Shown in pieces: positions 34,076-41,500 of a stretch of 61,517 bases of DNA. This DNA comes from Clostridiaceae bacterium (GTDB taxonomy: Bacteria > Bacillota > Clostridia > DSM-8532), in the NCBI GenBank assembly GCA_012520615.1, contig JAAYNX010000028.1, positions 1 through 61,517 of the forward strand, given 5' to 3'. The notes below the pieces were generated by a model. The model worked only from the letters and a program-made list of their open reading frames with translations, searched no databases and was not told where the DNA came from. Every line of letters starts with the position of its first letter. Position 1 is the stretch's first letter. A program made the position numbers and the translations under genes.

Positions 34076-35362
34076 ATGAGTAACACATCTTATAATCCTT
34101 ATGAAATTGCTCAGCAACAATTTGATTCGGTTGCCTCAAAGTTAGACCTTGATGCCGCAACCTGTGAACTTTTACGTCAGCCTATGCGCGAGTACCATTT
34201 CACAATACCCGTCAAAATGGATGACGGCAGCACTAAAATTTTTAAAGGATTCAGAGTACAACATAATGACGCAAGAGGCCCTGCAAAGGGTGGTATCCGT
34301 TTTCATCCAATGGAAACCGTTGACACAATACGTGCTCTATCATTGTGGATGACATGGAAATGTTCTGTGGTAGACATTCCATTAGGCGGAGCTAAAGGCG
34401 GCGTTATTTGTGACCCCAGAAATCTTACAGAACGCGAACAGGAAAGGCTTTGCCGCGGTTATGTACGTCAGTTGGCTAAGAATGTCGGTCCTAATTCTGA
34501 TGTTCCCGCACCTGATGTTATGACTAATGCAAAACATATGCTTTGGATGCTTGATGAATATGAGACTATTCATGGCAGCAGATACCCTGGCTTTATAACA
34601 GGCAAACCAGTTGGTATGGGTGGTTCTTTAGGAAGAACAGAGGCAACCGGCTTTGGCGTTATTTATGTTTTGAACGAAGCACTGAAGAACCTTAATATTC
34701 CTATTGAAAATACTACCGCAAGTTTCCAAGGATTCGGCAACGTTTCTCAGTATGCGGTTAGATTATATCAACAATTAGGTGGTAAGGTTGTTGCCATTTC
34801 CTGCTGGAATGAAACAGATAAAAAGGCTTATACCTTCCGCAAGCTTGACGGCATGGACATCAATGCTCTAGTAAGCATTACAGACTCATATGGAACCATC
34901 GATAAAGAGAAAGCTATGGGTCTAGGATATGAAGTTCTTCCTGGAGATGCATGGATTGAGCAGGATGTTGACATTTTAATTCCTGCTGCAATGGAAAACC
35001 AAATTACTATAGAAAATGTTAATAAAATTAGTAAACAAGTAAAAGTTATTACTGAAGCGGCTAACGGCCCTACAACTCCCGATGCTGATAAAGTAATCGC
35101 CGATAGAAATATCTTCCTTATTCCTGACTTCTTAGCTAATGCCGGTGGCGTAACTTGTAGCTATTTTGAGCAGGTTCAGTCAAATCAAAACTACTATTGG
35201 GAAAAGGATGAGGTCCTTGAAAAATTGAATACTAAGATGACCTCAGCATTTAAATCAGTATATGAGCTTTCGCAAAGCAAGGGTTTAAGGATGCGTGAAG
35301 CTGCATATGTTATTGCCATAAACCGTGTAGCACAGGCTGTTAAGAGCCGTGGATGGATTTGA
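34076..35362 (+). CDS. gdhA: Glu/Leu/Phe/Val dehydrogenase family: glutamate dehydrogenase
   Basis: A 428-residue NAD(P)-dependent amino acid dehydrogenase. The substrate loop is GFRVQHNDARGPAKGGIRFH, the catalytic lysine lies in VDIPLGGAKGGVICDP, the GITGKPVGMGGSLGRTEATG segment is typical of glutamate dehydrogenases, and the nucleotide-binding glycine motif is FQGFGNVSQYAV. It links glutamate and 2-oxoglutarate with ammonia. Strong ribosome site GGAGG. Preceded by its own promoter and followed by a strong hairpin, then by the ATP-grasp/nucleotidyltransferase gene on the same strand. Confidence 0.93.
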   Translation: MSNTSYNPYEIAQQQFDSVASKLDLDAATCELLRQPMREYHFTIPVKMDDGSTKIFKGFRVQHNDARGPAKGGIRFHPMETVDTIRALSLWMTWKCSVVDIPLGGAKGGVICDPRNLTEREQERLCRGYVRQLAKNVGPNSDVPAPDVMTNAKHMLWMLDEYETIHGSRYPGFITGKPVGMGGSLGRTEATGFGVIYVLNEALKNLNIPIENTTASFQGFGNVSQYAVRLYQQLGGKVVAISCWNETDKKAYTFRKLDGMDINALVSITDSYGTIDKEKAMGLGYEVLPGDAWIEQDVDILIPAAMENQITIENVNKISKQVKVITEAANGPTTPDADKVIADRNIFLIPDFLANAGGVTCSYFEQVQSNQNYYWEKDEVLEKLNTKMTSAFKSVYELSQSKGLRMREAAYVIAINRVAQAVKSRGWI

Positions 35363-35377
35363 TGTAACGGAACCTTT

Positions 35378-35425
35378 TTAGCTGTCATGTGTGCTAAGGA
35401 ATTTCGCCTTTCACATGACAGCTAA
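35378..35425 (+). other. 14-bp perfect hairpin between gdhA and the next gene
   Basis: TTAGCTGTCATGTG (35378-35391) and CACATGACAGCTAA (35412-35425) are exact complements around a 20-base loop. No T-run follows on the plus strand, so it is more likely an RNA processing, stability or attenuation element than a full terminator. Confidence 0.65.
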
Positions 35426-35507
35426 CAGGGTGCCTTATCGTTTCGCCCTACCATCATTTGTTTTACTTCACACCTCCAACCTTTACGATATGGGAGGCCT
35501 TGAAAAC

Positions 35508-38500
35508 ATGAGTAATATTAATAATTCCGATAACTTACTTGATGTCTTAAAGGAACGCGAAAAAGAACTAAATTGCTTATATATGGTTGACGATATTCTT
35601 GAAAATCATCAACTATCATTACCTGAGCTTTTTAGAGAAATCATTAAAGTACTTCCCTCAGGCTGGAGATTCCCTGAATATTGTAGTGTAAAAATAATAT
35701 TCAATAATCAAAGCTTTCAAAGCCCCAATTTCATATCCTCTCCTATTTCCGAAACCTGTAATATTAAGGCAGATGGAAATATTGTGGGCACCATTGAAGT
35801 TGTCTATATTAGGGATGTGCCGAAAACCGACGAAGGTTATTTTCTTTTCAAGGAAAAAAAACTGATAAAAACCGTTGCTGACAGAATCGGTCAAATGCTT
35901 GTATACAGGCAGATGAAATCTGTCATGAACGATTGGGAAACTTCAAAATCAAATTCATCTAAGACAGAAGAATGGGAAGTTGTCATCGAGTTTCTAAAGC
36001 ATACCGATAGCAGTATGCTTCTTCACATTTGCAGAAAACTGACGAATTACCTTTTGATTTTAGGTGTTAACGAAGCCTCTGCCCTCTTTAGTTGTTCTAC
36101 AGATAGTATAAAGGATGATGGCGGATATACTAATTCTCCAACAGCAGCGGAACCAATCGGTGATATAGAGCGTGTGTGTGAGGATGCATTTCGTATAGCT
36201 GTAAAATATATCGGTGCCGAGGAGCTAAAAAACCAAATCAAAAGATGGATGCAGGAAGAAAACTCCTATTCCCTTATTAAAGCCATCGGGAGCATATCTC
36301 CCACAATTCATAATATCATTGAAGCGTTAAAAAAATTCCAAAAATCTTCGAAGGGTTACCAACATGAACTCATGTTTTCCCCTAAAGGTCGCTGGCTTAC
36401 AGTGGGCTTGATTAAAGATTTTTTATCAAATAAACCTGATTTTATAAATATTGCAGCTCAATATATTAATTACACTGATTTCTATGAAATTATAAATAAT
36501 ATTATCTATCCCTCAGAGAGCCAAGGTAAAATCGGAGGCAAGGGCACAGGTTTATTTTTAGCAAAAAAAATACTTTCAAAAGAAAGTGATAATCTCCCTT
36601 TGCTTCAATCCATAAAAACTCCTAAGACATGGTATATTACCACTGACGCCATAACCGATTTTCTACATTATAATGATCTTGAAGAATTAAATGAACAAAA
36701 ATACAGAAGGATTCAAGAAATTCGCATCGAATACAGAAATGTTATTCATTTAATGAAAAACTCCAAGCTTCCTCCGGAAATTGTGAATAGTCTATCGGTG
36801 GCTTTAGATGATTTTGGCGATTCACCTATTATAGTCAGAAGCTCCAGTGTCTTGGAAGATCAAACCGGTGCTTCATTTTCCGGTAAATATAAGAGTTTGT
36901 TTTTAGCCAATCAGGGTAGTAAACAAGAAAGGCTATCAGCACTTCAAGATGCCATTATAGAGGTATATGCATCTATGTTCGGGCCCGATCCTATCCAATA
37001 CAGAGCAGAAAGAAATCTGCTTGATGTAAGCGAAGAAATGGGTATTCTGATACAACAGGTTGTTGGAACAAAGGTCGGTAAATACTTCTTCCCTCTGTTT
37101 TCCGGCGTTGCTTTCAGCAATAACGAATACAGATGGTCACCCAGAATTAAGAGAGAAGACGGTTTGATAAGAATGGTTCCCGGTTTGGGCACCCGCGCTG
37201 TTGACCGCTTAACCGATGATTTTCCCATAATGGTATCACCCCAGCAACCCGGAATAAAGGTAAACATAGTACCAGAAGAAATAAAAAGATATTCACCAAA
37301 AAAGATAGATGTTATCAATCTTGAGAGTAATTCTTTTGAAACCCTTAAAATATCTGACTTACTTCAAGAGTATGGTAATGAAATAGATAATATAAATAAA
37401 ATTGTTTCAATTATGGAATATGATCATATCCGAAAACCAAATATGTTTGAGATTGATTTCAAAAAGGATGATCTGGTTGTTACCTTTGACGGTATGATTA
37501 ACGATTCACCTTATATTACACAAATAAATGCGGCGCTCAGAACTCTGAAAACAAAACTCGGCTATCCTGTTGATATAGAATTTGCCTCTGACGGTAAAGA
37601 TTTATATCTTTTGCAATGCAGGCCTCAAAGCTTTAGAGAAGAAACTGCCCCTGCCCCTATTCCCCAGGACGTTTTACCTAAAGATATTATTTTTTCTGCA
37701 AATCGGTATATCTCGAATGGAATTATTCAAAATATATCGCATATTGTATATGTTAATCCCGAAAGTTACAACGAACTATCAGAGCTGGATGATTTAAAAA
37801 CAATAGGCAGAATTATTAGCGCTTTAAATGCTTTTCTCCCTAAACGTCAATTTATTCTTATAGGTCCCGGCCGCTGGGGAAGCCGCGGTGATATTAAACT
37901 TGGAGTTTCTGTCACTTACTCTGACATCAATAATACCGCAGCTTTGATTGAAGTCGCCAGAAAAAAAAGCGGATATATGCCTGAGCTATCTTTTGGCACT
38001 CATTTTTTCCAAGACCTTGTTGAAGCTAATATCCGTGTTCTGCCATTATACCCCGATAATGAAGGCATAATTTTTAATGAAAAATATCTTACAAAGTCCA
38101 GAAATATATTAAAAACAATATTCCCGGAATATGAAAAATTTGAGGAAGTTGTAAGAGTAATAGATGTACCATCAACATCTGATGGGTACAACCTGAGTAT
38201 TTGTATGAATGCTGATTTATCCCAAGCCTTGGGTTTCTTAACTCCTCATAGAATAAAACTTTCACGTCAGCAAGCCGTTGTTGAATACGATGACTATACC
38301 GGCGATGACAAGGCTTGGAGATGGCGCTCTCACATGGCAGAGCAGATAGCTTTAAAAGTTGATTCAACCCGTTTGGGCGTTAAGGGCTTCTACCTGTTTG
38401 GAAGTACCGCTTCCGGCACAGCTGGCCCCGGCAGTGATATTGATATCTTAATTCATTTTAAAGGTAACGAAACACAACGGGCAGAACTTGTAAGCTGGCT

Positions 38501-38672
38501 TGATGGTTGGAGTATGAGCCTCGCCGAAACAAACTATATGAATACAGGTTATAGGATGGATAAGATACTAGATGTACACATCATAACCGATGAGGACATC
38601 AACAATAAAGATTCATTTGCTATAAAGATAAATCACCCGATAGATCCGGCCATACCCTTAAAAATTTCTTAG
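35508..38672 (+). CDS. Fusion protein: GAF-like domain, PEP/pyruvate-binding ATP-grasp domain, C-terminal nucleotidyltransferase
   Basis: The ATG at 35508 has GGGAGG 11 bases upstream; an earlier in-frame ATG at 35391 falls inside a hairpin. About 1054 residues. Region 10-155 looks like a GAF-type sensor (LYMVDDILENHQLSLPELF to KTVADRIGQMLVYRQMK). The PEP-synthase-like ATP-grasp domain runs from about 340 (GKIGGKGTGLFLAKKIL) over IIVRSSSVLEDQTGASFSGK to YLLQCRPQS (about 707). A segment at about 780 (FILIGPGRWGSRGDIKLGVS) is typical of PEP-synthase-like proteins that lack the phosphohistidine domain, which I cannot find here. The C-terminus has a minimal nucleotidyltransferase motif GSTASGTAGPGSDIDIL (about 964-980), with the DxD metal pair. 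It would use ATP and transfer nucleotide or phosphate to an unknown target. Followed after 50 bases by a helicase gene. Confidence 0.8.
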   Translation: MSNINNSDNLLDVLKEREKELNCLYMVDDILENHQLSLPELFREIIKVLPSGWRFPEYCSVKIIFNNQSFQSPNFISSPISETCNIKADGNIVGTIEVVYIRDVPKTDEGYFLFKEKKLIKTVADRIGQMLVYRQMKSVMNDWETSKSNSSKTEEWEVVIEFLKHTDSSMLLHICRKLTNYLLILGVNEASALFSCSTDSIKDDGGYTNSPTAAEPIGDIERVCEDAFRIAVKYIGAEELKNQIKRWMQEENSYSLIKAIGSISPTIHNIIEALKKFQKSSKGYQHELMFSPKGRWLTVGLIKDFLSNKPDFINIAAQYINYTDFYEIINNIIYPSESQGKIGGKGTGLFLAKKILSKESDNLPLLQSIKTPKTWYITTDAITDFLHYNDLEELNEQKYRRIQEIRIEYRNVIHLMKNSKLPPEIVNSLSVALDDFGDSPIIVRSSSVLEDQTGASFSGKYKSLFLANQGSKQERLSALQDAIIEVYASMFGPDPIQYRAERNLLDVSEEMGILIQQVVGTKVGKYFFPLFSGVAFSNNEYRWSPRIKREDGLIRMVPGLGTRAVDRLTDDFPIMVSPQQPGIKVNIVPEEIKRYSPKKIDVINLESNSFETLKISDLLQEYGNEIDNINKIVSIMEYDHIRKPNMFEIDFKKDDLVVTFDGMINDSPYITQINAALRTLKTKLGYPVDIEFASDGKDLYLLQCRPQSFREETAPAPIPQDVLPKDIIFSANRYISNGIIQNISHIVYVNPESYNELSELDDLKTIGRIISALNAFLPKRQFILIGPGRWGSRGDIKLGVSVTYSDINNTAALIEVARKKSGYMPELSFGTHFFQDLVEANIRVLPLYPDNEGIIFNEKYLTKSRNILKTIFPEYEKFEEVVRVIDVPSTSDGYNLSICMNADLSQALGFLTPHRIKLSRQQAVVEYDDYTGDDKAWRWRSHMAEQIALKVDSTRLGVKGFYLFGSTASGTAGPGSDIDILIHFKGNETQRAELVSWLDGWSMSLAETNYMNTGYRMDKILDVHIITDEDINNKDSFAIKINHPIDPAIPLKIS

Positions 38673-38722: not shown

Positions 38723-41500
38723 ATGATGAAGAAACTTTCGGGGAATGATAAAAAAAGGTATTCTTTTAAAGGAACGTTCAGAAACTATCAAGCACGCGTT
38801 CTTGCGGATGCAGAAATACATTTGGCCGATAATCGAGTACATATTGTTGCGGCTCCGGGATCAGGTAAGACAATTTTAGGCTTGGAGTTAATTTTCAGAA
38901 TTGGCGAGCCTGCTTTGGTCTTATCCCCCACTTTATCAATCAGAAATCAATGGAAACAGCGCTTTACCGAATCATTCACGGATAATCAGAATGCAGATGA
39001 TATTGTTTCCACTTCGTTAAAAGATATAAAATTTATAACTTCTATTACTTACCAAACACTACATTCTGCTTTAAATAAGCTAAGCAGCTGCCGTGCAATT
39101 AATAGTAAGGATTCCGAAGAGGGCGATACAGATAGCGAAAATAATGAATCCGGACAAGATGTATTAAACCAATGGGATGATTTGTGCGACAACGAAGATT
39201 ACAATAATTTTGAAATCCTAAAGGCAATAAAAAAAGCAGGTGTTAAAACGATTTGTCTCGATGAGGCACATCATTTACGTTTAGAATGGCAAAAATCTTT
39301 AGAAAATTTCTTAAGTAAGCTAGATAAAGACTATAAAATAATCGCTTTAACTGCAACCCCTCCGTATGATGCCAATAAATATGAATGGGATAAATATATT
39401 TCTGTTTGCGGGGAGATTGACGACGAAATTTTTGTCCCGGAATTGGTTAAAGAAAAAAATCTTTGCTACCATCAAGATTATATATACTTTAATTATCCCG
39501 GACAACATGAGTTAAATGCAATTTATGAATTTGATGCCAGAATTGATCGTTTTGTAGACGAATTGTTTAACGAAGGCCTTTTATATAGATTGGCCAATGA
39601 AAACCTTGTTTTTAAAGATCCGGATAAATATTTAGACATATGTTTTGATGATGAAGAAGATTTTATCGGATTTTTGAACCTGTTAGATTATTCGAGCGAG
39701 TATATTCCTGCTGATATAATCTCAATTTTTTTAAGTCAAAATAATCGTATACCTGTTGATGCAGGCTTTCAGTTTATTTTAAATCATAAAGAATTATTTA
39801 ATGAGGACCTTTACGATACCATCATAAAAAAGCTTAAAGAAGCAAAATTAATAGAAAGAAACAAGGTTAGAATAATTTTTGATAAAAAGATTAATAATCT
39901 CATGATTCAGTCGGTTGGGAAACTTCAGAGCATAAAAGAGATTTGCAACGCTGAATTCAATGCTATGGGCAATAACTTACGAATGTTAATTTTAGGTGAT
40001 TATATAAGAAAAAACTACCTGAATGATATTGGCACCGAAAATTCTTTTACCCAAATAGGTATAGTACCGATTTTTGAAACCGTCAGACGTAGTTTAGGAA
40101 CAAGCGCAAAGATTGGCGTTTTAACAGGCAGTTTAATAATTCTACCTGAAATTACGCTAAATGAAATACGAAGCATAGCTGAGAAAAACGGGGTTAGTTT
40201 TAAATGCACGCAAATAATTGAAGGATATGTAATCATTGATAATGTTAATAAAAGTAGTGCCATGGTGAGCATTATTACTGGTGCTTTTCAAATGGGTCTT
40301 ATAGAAATACTGATAGGAACAAAATCACTTTTAGGCGAAGGCTGGGATTCACCCAATATAAACAGTTTAATACTTGCGAGCTTTGTCGGGTCTTATGTTT
40401 TATCAAACCAAATGCGAGGAAGAGCTATTAGAATTGACCCGATATACAAAGATAAATCTGCAAACATATGGCATTTGGTAACAGTGAACCCGCCACATTT
40501 GTTTAAAAACAAACTCATGTCCGGAGAAAAAAGTTGGTTTGGAGATCCGCTTTCCGGTTCTAATGACTTTATTACTCTGAAACGGCGATTCAAAACCTTT
40601 GTTGGGCCTCATTATTCGAAAAATTCTATTGAAAACGGTATAGAGAGAATCGACATTATAACCCCACCTTTTGATAAGGAAGGTTTTAACCGTATAAATA
40701 ATATAATGTTACAATTGGCCGCTGACAGGGAAGGCATGGCCCAAAAATGGAAGAAAGCCTTAGGCGAAGAAACCAATAACAAAAAAGCAAACTACGAAAT
40801 GCAAAAGCAGGTGCGAATTAAAAAGAAGAAAATCCCTGAAATTAGGTTTATTAATCACCTTAATTCGATTTTTGTAACTGCAAGCCTATTAATTTATTAT
40901 TACGTATTAAGATCTATAGTATTCCGAAGTATATTTACCGGTAATCCTATGTTCTTACTTTCCGGATTTGTGGCAGCCAACGTTCAATTAGCCTTTTCTA
41001 TAAAGAGCAAAGTATTTTTTGCCAGAATAACATCGCCAAAAAGAAGATTGAAAATTCAATCCGAGGCGATACTCAAAACCTTTATATATATGGGTGTAAT
41101 TAAATCTGAAGATGTTAAGGTAAAAGTAGAAAGCAATGGGATTGATGATTTTATTACCATAAGTTTAGTAGGCGGTACAGCTCATGAAAAAGAAATTTTT
41201 GCAGCTGCCCTAAAAGAAATGGCAGCACCTATACAAAGGCAAAAATACTTATTAATTCATAAATCAAAGAAAAAAATTAAAAAGTATCTTCTTGCTACTC
41301 CCTGTCCTGAATTGATAGCCAGAAGACGAGAATACGTAGATTTTTTACAAAAGGAGTTTAAAAGAAAGATGCTTCCCTATGACGTTATTCATACCAGGAA
41401 TGCAGAAGGAAGAGAAATACTGCTAAAGGTAAGAAAGCTATCTTTAAAAAGTATCGATACAGCTTTATCTGAATGCATAGAGCGCTTCGTTAGCAAATAA
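38723..41500 (+). CDS. Superfamily II DEAH-type helicase with a hydrophobic, probably membrane-spanning, segment
   Basis: A 925-residue protein. Helicase motifs: Q-like FRNYQARVLADAE, Walker A HIVAAPGSGKTILGLEL (about residues 42-58), DEAH in TICLDEAHHLRLEW, motif III ALTATPPYD, and late ILIGTKSLLGEGWDSPNINS with QMRGRAIRIDP (motif VI). A long insert separates the two RecA lobes. At about residues 715-765, FVTASLLIYYYVLRSIVF and FLLSGFVAANVQLAF suggest two membrane helices, which is unusual for an SF2 helicase. The last 150 residues are a basic domain of unknown type. It probably remodels nucleic acid at the membrane. Co-directional with the ATP-grasp/nucleotidyltransferase gene (50-base gap); the ribosome site (GGGTG) is weak. 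Convergent with the response regulator gene. Confidence 0.82.
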   Translation: MMKKLSGNDKKRYSFKGTFRNYQARVLADAEIHLADNRVHIVAAPGSGKTILGLELIFRIGEPALVLSPTLSIRNQWKQRFTESFTDNQNADDIVSTSLKDIKFITSITYQTLHSALNKLSSCRAINSKDSEEGDTDSENNESGQDVLNQWDDLCDNEDYNNFEILKAIKKAGVKTICLDEAHHLRLEWQKSLENFLSKLDKDYKIIALTATPPYDANKYEWDKYISVCGEIDDEIFVPELVKEKNLCYHQDYIYFNYPGQHELNAIYEFDARIDRFVDELFNEGLLYRLANENLVFKDPDKYLDICFDDEEDFIGFLNLLDYSSEYIPADIISIFLSQNNRIPVDAGFQFILNHKELFNEDLYDTIIKKLKEAKLIERNKVRIIFDKKINNLMIQSVGKLQSIKEICNAEFNAMGNNLRMLILGDYIRKNYLNDIGTENSFTQIGIVPIFETVRRSLGTSAKIGVLTGSLIILPEITLNEIRSIAEKNGVSFKCTQIIEGYVIIDNVNKSSAMVSIITGAFQMGLIEILIGTKSLLGEGWDSPNINSLILASFVGSYVLSNQMRGRAIRIDPIYKDKSANIWHLVTVNPPHLFKNKLMSGEKSWFGDPLSGSNDFITLKRRFKTFVGPHYSKNSIENGIERIDIITPPFDKEGFNRINNIMLQLAADREGMAQKWKKALGEETNNKKANYEMQKQVRIKKKKIPEIRFINHLNSIFVTASLLIYYYVLRSIVFRSIFTGNPMFLLSGFVAANVQLAFSIKSKVFFARITSPKRRLKIQSEAILKTFIYMGVIKSEDVKVKVESNGIDDFITISLVGGTAHEKEIFAAALKEMAAPIQRQKYLLIHKSKKKIKKYLLATPCPELIARRREYVDFLQKEFKRKMLPYDVIHTRNAEGREILLKVRKLSLKSIDTALSECIERFVSK

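What the first reader, a model, noticed from the sequence alone, without database searches (positions are those of the whole stretch)
35508..38672. Fusion of a PEP-synthase-type ATP-grasp domain with a minimal nucleotidyltransferase
The protein has the ATP-grasp part of PEP synthase but no phosphohistidine or PEP-binding barrel that I can find, and it ends with a GSx(n)SDIDIL nucleotidyltransferase core. A GAF-like domain is at the front. ATP-grasp plus nucleotidyltransferase in one chain suggests nucleotide or phosphate transfer to a protein or RNA target under control of a small ligand, an activity I do not know to be described for this architecture.
Basis: partly seen in the sequence, partly recalled or inferred. 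Interest (0 to 1): 0.7.

Follow-up and report, generated by a model that had tools for sequence, protein, structure and literature searches.

The report
Glutamate-dehydrogenase-linked sensory dikinase–nucleotidyltransferase fusion
This is a multi-part enzyme (a sensor, a phosphate-transfer engine and a nucleotide-transfer tail) whose gene sits beside the gene for glutamate dehydrogenase in bacteria of many phyla, so it is probably an undescribed controller of that nitrogen-metabolism enzyme, although its chemistry and its target have not been shown.

Summary
One intact 1054-residue protein (35508-38672, +) carries a GAF domain, a helical region, a PEP-synthase-type ATP-grasp domain, a ~195-residue domain absent from Pfam, and a minimal nucleotidyltransferase. 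Catalytic residues of ATP-grasp and nucleotidyltransferase are identical in all 73 sequences aligned, from many phyla. The pyruvate barrel is absent. The unassigned domain follows the ATP-grasp where dikinases carry their phosphohistidine domain, is predicted to have the same swivelling fold, and has an invariant His at the equivalent place, so it is probably a divergent phosphocarrier (not proven).

A particular glutamate dehydrogenase (GDH) gene lies next door. 47 of 48 loci with enough upstream DNA have a GDH-family gene, 43 of them this type, same strand, within 3.6 kb. In 119 Acidobacteriota genomes, 23 of 24 with this GDH also have the ATP-grasp protein. Many loci add a second ATP-grasp protein and a metallophosphoesterase. 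Natural variants lose the nucleotidyltransferase or the GAF yet keep GDH beside them, so GDH is linked to the dikinase-like core.

Best explanation: a ligand-sensing, reversible control module for GDH acting by phosphate and/or nucleotide transfer. The linkage is well supported; the chemistry is inferred. No characterised homologue was found.

The parts
34076..35362 (+). glutamate dehydrogenase gene (428 aa), conserved partner immediately upstream
   Evidence: Pfam ELFV_dehydrog 2.5e-71 and ELFV_dehydrog_N 2.5e-55; GDH-family gene present in 47/48 assessable loci; sequence keeps K71, K95, K107, D147, S362, which I match from memory to the GDH substrate and catalytic residues
33866..33894 (+). 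promoter-like site TTGACA-17-TATGAT with TG, about 180 nt upstream of the GDH gene
   Evidence: 11 of 12 consensus matches; a consensus match only
35369..35434 (+). stable intergenic hairpin between the GDH stop and the fusion start
   Evidence: inverted repeat, 23-nt arms, 87% complementary; RNA fold z -3.29; single copy in the genome
35508..38672 (+). GAF - helical - ATP-grasp - swivel-like - nucleotidyltransferase fusion, 1054 aa
35529..35957 (+). GAF domain (residues 8-150)
   Evidence: VIA-align Z 12.7 to 3cit, 11.7 to NifA GAF 8jrc; model pLDDT about 80-92 over most of it
35958..36497 (+). helical region (residues 151-330), the least conserved region apart from the linker
   Evidence: AlphaFold2 secondary structure; mean pairwise identity 0.37
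36498..37667 (+). PEP-synthase/PPDK-type ATP-grasp domain (residues 331-720); K345, R444, E450, E691, Q703, R705 invariant
   Evidence: PPDK_N 4e-61; RPH 5hv3 Z 25.8, PEP synthase 2ols Z 25.3; 73/73 conserved
37671..38252 (+). unassigned domain (residues 722-915), candidate divergent phosphohistidine swivel domain
   Evidence: no Pfam hit of its own in 72 members at E<=10; own model pLDDT 89; VIA-align Z 4.4-6.2, mostly to swivelling beta/beta/alpha folds including PPDK 386-527, RPH 759-867 and the pyruvate kinase C-terminal domain
38001..38003 (+). codon of H832, invariant candidate phosphoryl carrier (SFG-T-H-FFQD), at the start of a helix
   Evidence: 73/73 in the fusion; also invariant when the companion ATP-grasp proteins are included
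38307..38642 (+). minimal nucleotidyltransferase domain (residues 934-1045): G965-S966, D977, D979, D1022
   Evidence: NTP_transf_2 1.2e-10; Foldseek MNT 8xeh/8xeo and 2rff, probability 0.99-1.00; catalytic residues 73/73

Best explanation
The protein is a ligand-sensing controller of the glutamate dehydrogenase encoded next to it. Proposed working: the GAF domain binds a small signal. The ATP-grasp domain splits ATP and phosphorylates H832 on the next, swivelling domain, as in dikinases. Because the chain has no acceptor barrel, the swivel delivers the phosphate to an acceptor outside the core, most simply GDH itself or something bound to it. Where present, the C-terminal nucleotidyltransferase adds a second modification (nucleotidylation) to the same partner or to the complex. 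In many bacteria a metallophosphoesterase encoded next door could reverse the modification. Shown here: domain content, invariant catalytic residues, and the conserved linkage of the ATP-grasp/unassigned-domain core with GDH. Inferred: that the unassigned domain is a phosphocarrier, that GDH is the acceptor, and that the metallophosphoesterase is the eraser.
For: GDH-family gene present in 47 of 48 loci with >=4.2 kb upstream; leaving out four exceptions in the same listing, 43 have the 62-93% identical GDH on the same strand within 3.6 kb. All 12 related genomes with the fusion have this GDH beside it (in G016 the fusion itself is split over two contigs). Even draw of 119 Acidobacteriota genomes: ATP-grasp protein in 26, this GDH in 24, both in 23 (Fisher p 3e-20, uncorrected for phylogeny), adjacent or within about 3 kb in 20 of 27 places. 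Relatives with the same ATP-grasp and unassigned domain but a KaiC-like front end have GDH nearby in only 1 of 12, so linkage is not a property of the superfamily. Extra GDH-family paralogues lie in some clusters; a GltS-like gene (glutamate transporter by my reading of the sequence; no Pfam hit) lies downstream in 4 clostridial loci. Catalytic residues invariant. Companion ATP-grasp protein in 40/63 loci and metallophosphoesterase in 36/69, 30/39 with the companion against 3/20 without. Precedents: MNT domains adenylylate a partner protein (PMC7641770, PMC11586414); dikinases phosphorylate varied acceptors through a swivelling His (PMC4844700).
Against: No direct evidence of modification. GDHs of this type occur without the fusion, and no GDH residue cleanly separates those with from those without it, so no target site is visible. 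No sequence homology of the unassigned domain to PF00391 by profile comparison, and its fold match is modest (Z up to 6.2). Gene neighbourhood also fits a metabolic partner rather than a protein target. Neighbourhood counts are not corrected for shared ancestry or horizontal transfer.
Confidence: 0.42

Rival explanations
1. Small-molecule dikinase: the ATP-grasp/swivel core phosphorylates a metabolite connected with glutamate metabolism, and GDH is a pathway neighbour, not a protein target.
For: Known relatives of this ATP-grasp act on small molecules: rifampin (PMC4844700), hydroxyphenylethanones by HpeI (PMC12167813), pyruvate. Conserved neighbours of metabolic type, GDH and in some a GltS-like gene.
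Against: No acceptor domain such as the PEP barrel or the RPH rifampin-binding domain is present in the chain; a GAF sensor and a nucleotidyltransferase are unusual for a catabolic kinase; the same GDH is kept in genomes that lack the fusion, so the fusion is not essential to the pathway.
Confidence: 0.22
2. Non-covalent, energy-dependent regulator: ATP turnover and His phosphorylation drive conformational changes that switch a GDH complex on or off, without modifying GDH.
For: Same linkage evidence as the best explanation; no candidate modification site in GDH; C-terminal catalytic motif lost in one GDH-linked relative (L179) and the whole nucleotidyltransferase absent in many.
Against: The nucleotidyltransferase catalytic residues are invariant in the 73 sequences that have the domain, which suggests real transfer chemistry where it is kept.
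Confidence: 0.2
3. Broader signalling protein with targets other than GDH (RNA, a regulator, or a nucleotide second messenger); GDH adjacency reflects co-regulation by nitrogen status.
For: GAF sensor; a family of response-regulator-like genes in 8 of 80 loci (naming by my reading of the sequence); variable N-terminal sensors in relatives, GAF or KaiC-like.
Against: No other gene approaches the frequency of GDH next to it; co-occurrence with this GDH type is nearly one-to-one in Acidobacteriota.
Confidence: 0.13

Closest known systems
Rifampin phosphotransferase (RPH) and PEP synthase / pyruvate phosphate dikinase
   Same: ATP-grasp domain (Z 25.8 and 25.3; PPDK_N E 4e-61) with the catalytic Lys, Arg, Glu, Gln; a following domain with the predicted swivel fold and an invariant His.
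   Different: No rifampin-binding domain and no PEP/pyruvate barrel; the putative swivel domain is not recognised by sequence; GAF in front and nucleotidyltransferase behind; found next to GDH.
MNT (MntA) minimal nucleotidyltransferase of HEPN/MNT toxin-antitoxin systems
   Same: GSx(10)DxD and a third Asp; Foldseek matches to MNT structures.
   Different: Fused to a large sensory ATP-grasp protein; no HEPN partner among the conserved neighbours; the conserved neighbour is a metabolic enzyme.
GlnE / GlnD nucleotidylyl switches of glutamine synthetase and PII (from own knowledge)
   Same: Would be the functional analogue: a nucleotidyltransferase protein dedicated to a central enzyme of ammonium assimilation.
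   Different: No GlnE/GlnD domains; an ATP-grasp/swivel core rather than tandem nucleotidyltransferases; the linked enzyme is glutamate dehydrogenase.
KaiC-like + PPDK_N + same C-terminal domain proteins (about 855 aa) in the same bacterial family
   Same: ATP-grasp and the unassigned domain at 29-36% identity, including GPGRWG and G[ST]HFF.
   Different: KaiC/RecA-like front end (my reading of the sequence) instead of GAF, no nucleotidyltransferase, no conserved neighbours.

Membership tests
PEP synthase / PPDK (PEP-utilising dikinases) | PPDK_N ATP-grasp domain with conserved ATP-binding residues | tested here: met
   PPDK_N 4e-61; K345, R444, E691, Q703, R705 in 73/73; Z 25 to PEP synthase and RPH
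PEP synthase / PPDK (PEP-utilising dikinases) | phosphohistidine domain recognisable as PF00391 | tested here: not met
   no PF00391 match at E<=1 in the protein or in 72 domain homologues at E<=10; hhalign not significant
PEP synthase / PPDK (PEP-utilising dikinases) | swivelling beta/beta/alpha fold after the ATP-grasp with a catalytic His | tested here: inconclusive
   model of residues 722-926 matches PPDK, RPH and pyruvate-kinase swivel domains at Z 4.4-6.0; His832 invariant at a helix start; residue-level superposition could not be made
PEP synthase / PPDK (PEP-utilising dikinases) | PEP/pyruvate-binding TIM barrel PF02896 | tested here: not met
   no Pfam match at E<=1; chain accounted for by other domains
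Rifampin phosphotransferase | central rifampin-binding domain and C-terminal His domain | tested here: not met
   ATP-grasp is followed directly by the swivel-like domain and then a nucleotidyltransferase; NCBIfam RIF_Ptrans_rph 43.9 bits against a cut-off of 999
MNT-type minimal nucleotidyltransferase domain | GSx(n)DxD motif, third Asp, nucleotidyltransferase fold | tested here: met
   NTP_transf_2 42 bits over cut-off 21; G965, S966, D977, D979, D1022 invariant; Foldseek probability 0.99-1.00 to MNT and 2rff
HEPN/MNT toxin-antitoxin system | adjacent HEPN toxin gene | tested here: not met
   no small conserved neighbour gene among clustered ORFs of at least 90 aa; the conserved neighbours are GDH, a second ATP-grasp protein and a metallophosphoesterase
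GlnE/GlnD-type nitrogen regulators | GlnE or GlnD domain families | tested here: not met
   no GlnE, GlnD_UR_UTase, HD or ACT match in Pfam or NCBIfam
GAF domain | GAF fold | tested here: met
   VIA-align Z 9.6-12.7 to many GAF structures over residues 1-153; no Pfam GAF match
Enzyme that modifies glutamate dehydrogenase | biochemical modification or regulation of GDH | not testable with these tools
   only genomic linkage available

The most novel reading that the evidence does not exclude
A previously undescribed, widely distributed system that controls glutamate dehydrogenase by reversible covalent modification: a GAF-sensing protein dikinase that passes phosphate from a histidine on a swivelling domain to GDH, with an optional nucleotidyltransferase as a second writer, a paralogous second dikinase, and a metallophosphoesterase as eraser. 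It would be the GDH counterpart of the GlnE/GlnD control of glutamine synthetase.
Probability: 0.25. Interest if true: 0.85.

Novelty: new variant of a known kind. Interest (0 to 1): 0.62.

Why it matters
Glutamate dehydrogenase links carbon and nitrogen metabolism in nearly all organisms, and, to my knowledge, no dedicated bacterial modifying enzyme of the GlnE/GlnD kind is established for it. Here a conserved gene pair (or a four-gene set) across many, mostly uncultured, phyla offers a concrete, testable candidate. It also suggests that the dikinase engine, so far known for small acceptors, may have been turned into a protein- or complex-directed regulator, and it names a conserved ~195-residue domain that Pfam lacks. 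Because homologues resemble PEP synthase over their best-recognised part, they invite misreading as pyruvate metabolism in metagenome reconstructions.

Tried and rejected
Profile comparison of the unassigned domain with canonical phosphohistidine domains (hhalign with 3, then 14 sequences) was not significant; Pfam scan of 72 homologues of it found nothing consistent; Foldseek of that domain against the PDB found nothing below E 0.001, so the phosphocarrier reading rests on the VIA-align second look, domain order and the invariant His. Search for GDH residues that separate partners from non-partners of the fusion found none clean. Apparent splits of the nucleotidyltransferase into its own ORF (G010/L099, L056) coincide with unread bases (N) in the assemblies, so I do not count them as gene splits. 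Defence-system reading: PADLOC hits are only candidate families over the nucleotidyltransferase part. Phage origin: no relative in viral contigs. True PEP synthase: rejected, no barrel. The downstream helicase (38723-41500) is not a conserved neighbour. Literature searches for the architecture or for the GDH pairing found nothing relevant; the library holds open-licence papers only. PMC4324140 mentions a nucleotidyltransferase protein Swol_1036, but I did not establish whether it is a homologue.
Full report
OBSERVATION. The ORF is real: 35391-38672 from GTG, or 35508-38672 from an ATG with a GGGAGG ribosome-binding site 10 nt upstream. The 1054-residue protein has PPDK_N at 341-719 (E 4e-61) and NTP_transf_2 at 955-998 (E 1.2e-10). 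A paralogue with 83% identity lies on contig C33 of the same genome. So architecture and reading frame are old and conserved.

ANATOMY. AlphaFold2 gave a good model (mean pLDDT 83.8). VIA-align places a GAF domain at about 9-144 (3cit, Z 12.7) and a PEP-synthase/RPH ATP-grasp at about 301-711 (5hv3 Z 25.8; 2ols Z 25.3). Foldseek matches the C-terminus to MNT nucleotidyltransferases at probability 0.99-1.00, with weak E-values in a search with the whole chain. In 73 aligned sequences the ATP-grasp residues K345, R444, E450, E691, Q703, R705 and the nucleotidyltransferase residues G965, S966, D977, D979, D1022 never change. Conservation is equal and high in ATP-grasp, the next domain and the nucleotidyltransferase (mean pairwise identity 0.61-0.63) and lower in GAF (0.42) and helical region (0.37); a hypervariable linker (0.09) precedes the nucleotidyltransferase.

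THE UNASSIGNED DOMAIN (722-915). It contains GPGRWGSRGD and SFGTHFFQDL. No Pfam family matches it consistently in 72 homologues. Predicted alone it is confident (pLDDT 89). Foldseek finds nothing significant. VIA-align gives Z up to 6.2; most rows are, by my knowledge of fold classes, swivelling beta/beta/alpha domains: pyruvate kinase C-terminal domain (Z 6.0), PPDK 386-527 (4.4-5.1), RPH 759-867 (4.6-4.9), RraA, TRiC apical and PA domains. With the whole chain, PPDK and PEP synthase align through model residues 916-925, that is through this domain. H832 is invariant, starts a helix between two strands and follows Thr or Ser, as in the TSHAAIVARELGIP signature of dikinases; by eye the order strand - loop - strand - (T/S)H-helix - strand - terminal hairpin and an N-terminal SNG-I segment (SPG-A in PPDK) also agree. 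Profile comparison does not support homology. I take it as a probable divergent phosphocarrier domain, unproven.

NEIGHBOURHOOD. The gene just upstream (34076-35362) is a glutamate dehydrogenase. tblastn on the 80 loci: of 48 loci with at least 4.2 kb upstream, 47 hold a GDH-family gene. Four of the 47 are not the plain case (L038 divergent; L079 other GDH types; L034 and L036 about 5 kb away), so 43 have this GDH on the same strand within 3.6 kb. In many non-clostridial loci a second, ~580-aa ATP-grasp protein with the same C-terminal domain lies between (40 of 63), and a calcineurin-type metallophosphoesterase follows, mostly convergent (36 of 69); the two go together, 30/39 against 3/20 (Fisher 7e-6, not corrected for phylogeny). 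A GltS-like gene follows in four clostridial loci. All 12 relatives with the fusion have this GDH next to it; the GDH also occurs without it, once with a clean absence between GDH and gltS (G003) and once with a decayed remnant (G017), so the fusion is dispensable.

UNBIASED SAMPLES AND NATURAL VARIANTS. In 148 genomes of the phylum of L061, 13 have the protein; of 11 fetched loci where it can be judged, 9 have GDH beside it. In an even draw of 119 Acidobacteriota genomes the ATP-grasp protein is in 26 and this GDH in 24, both in 23 (Fisher 3e-20, uncorrected), adjacent or within about 3 kb in 20 of 27 places; the other seven lie on separate contigs or have no such GDH. There the match ends at about residue 915 in most genomes: chains that stop just after the unassigned domain, still next to GDH, sometimes with further GDH paralogues in the cluster. 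L179 has a C-terminus without the catalytic motif and GDH next to it; L178 matches only from residue 156 on and so seems to lack the GAF, with GDH next to it; L180 lacks both GAF and nucleotidyltransferase and has no GDH. The KaiC-like relatives, which share ATP-grasp and unassigned domain, have GDH nearby in 1 of 12. So the GDH link belongs to this clade's ATP-grasp/unassigned-domain core, and the nucleotidyltransferase is an accessory.

MECHANISM. I favour a GDH controller: GAF senses a ligand, ATP-grasp charges H832, the swivel passes phosphate to an acceptor outside the core (GDH most simply), and the nucleotidyltransferase adds a second modification where present; the metallophosphoesterase may reverse it. 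The dikinase cycle is established for RPH (PMC4844700) and protein adenylylation for MNT domains (PMC7641770, PMC11586414). Against it: no target residue in GDH stands out, and a small-molecule substrate or a non-covalent role is not excluded. NifA's GAF (8jrc, Z 11.7), which I recall binds 2-oxoglutarate, is among many similar GAF hits, so a 2-oxoglutarate signal is only a guess.

NOVELTY. It is not a PEP synthase, PPDK or RPH, since defining domains are missing; it uses a dikinase-type engine and an MNT-type domain. No description of the architecture or of the GDH pairing was found in the open-licence papers searched. I rate it a new variant of a known kind of enzyme with a well-supported new functional association and an unproven function.

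Noticed in passing
35369-35434: Stable hairpin between the GDH stop codon and the fusion gene (12-bp perfect core, RNA fold z -3.29), single copy and not found in relatives; may set the expression ratio of the two genes.
   Followed up: partly
G000 contigs C40 (window) and C33 (L002): The genome carries two GDH + fusion cassettes; GDHs 92% and fusions 83% identical, so the pair duplicated or was acquired as a unit.
   Followed up: partly
37671-38252; L101-L108: A ~195-aa conserved domain (GPGRWG...G[ST]HFF) without any Pfam family, present in at least three architectures (fusion, 580-aa companion, KaiC-like proteins).
   Followed up: yes
L201, L196, L199: Acidobacterial clusters in which two or three GDH-family genes of different types surround the ATP-grasp protein.
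   Followed up: partly
L119 (G017) and L113 (G003): A decayed remnant of the fusion next to GDH, and a clean absence of the fusion between GDH and gltS.
   Followed up: partly
L179:4112-7144 (-): GDH-linked homologue whose C-terminal region has lost the nucleotidyltransferase catalytic motif.
   Followed up: partly
38723-41500: 925-aa ResIII/XPB-like helicase gene right after the fusion; not conserved next to it elsewhere.
   Followed up: partly
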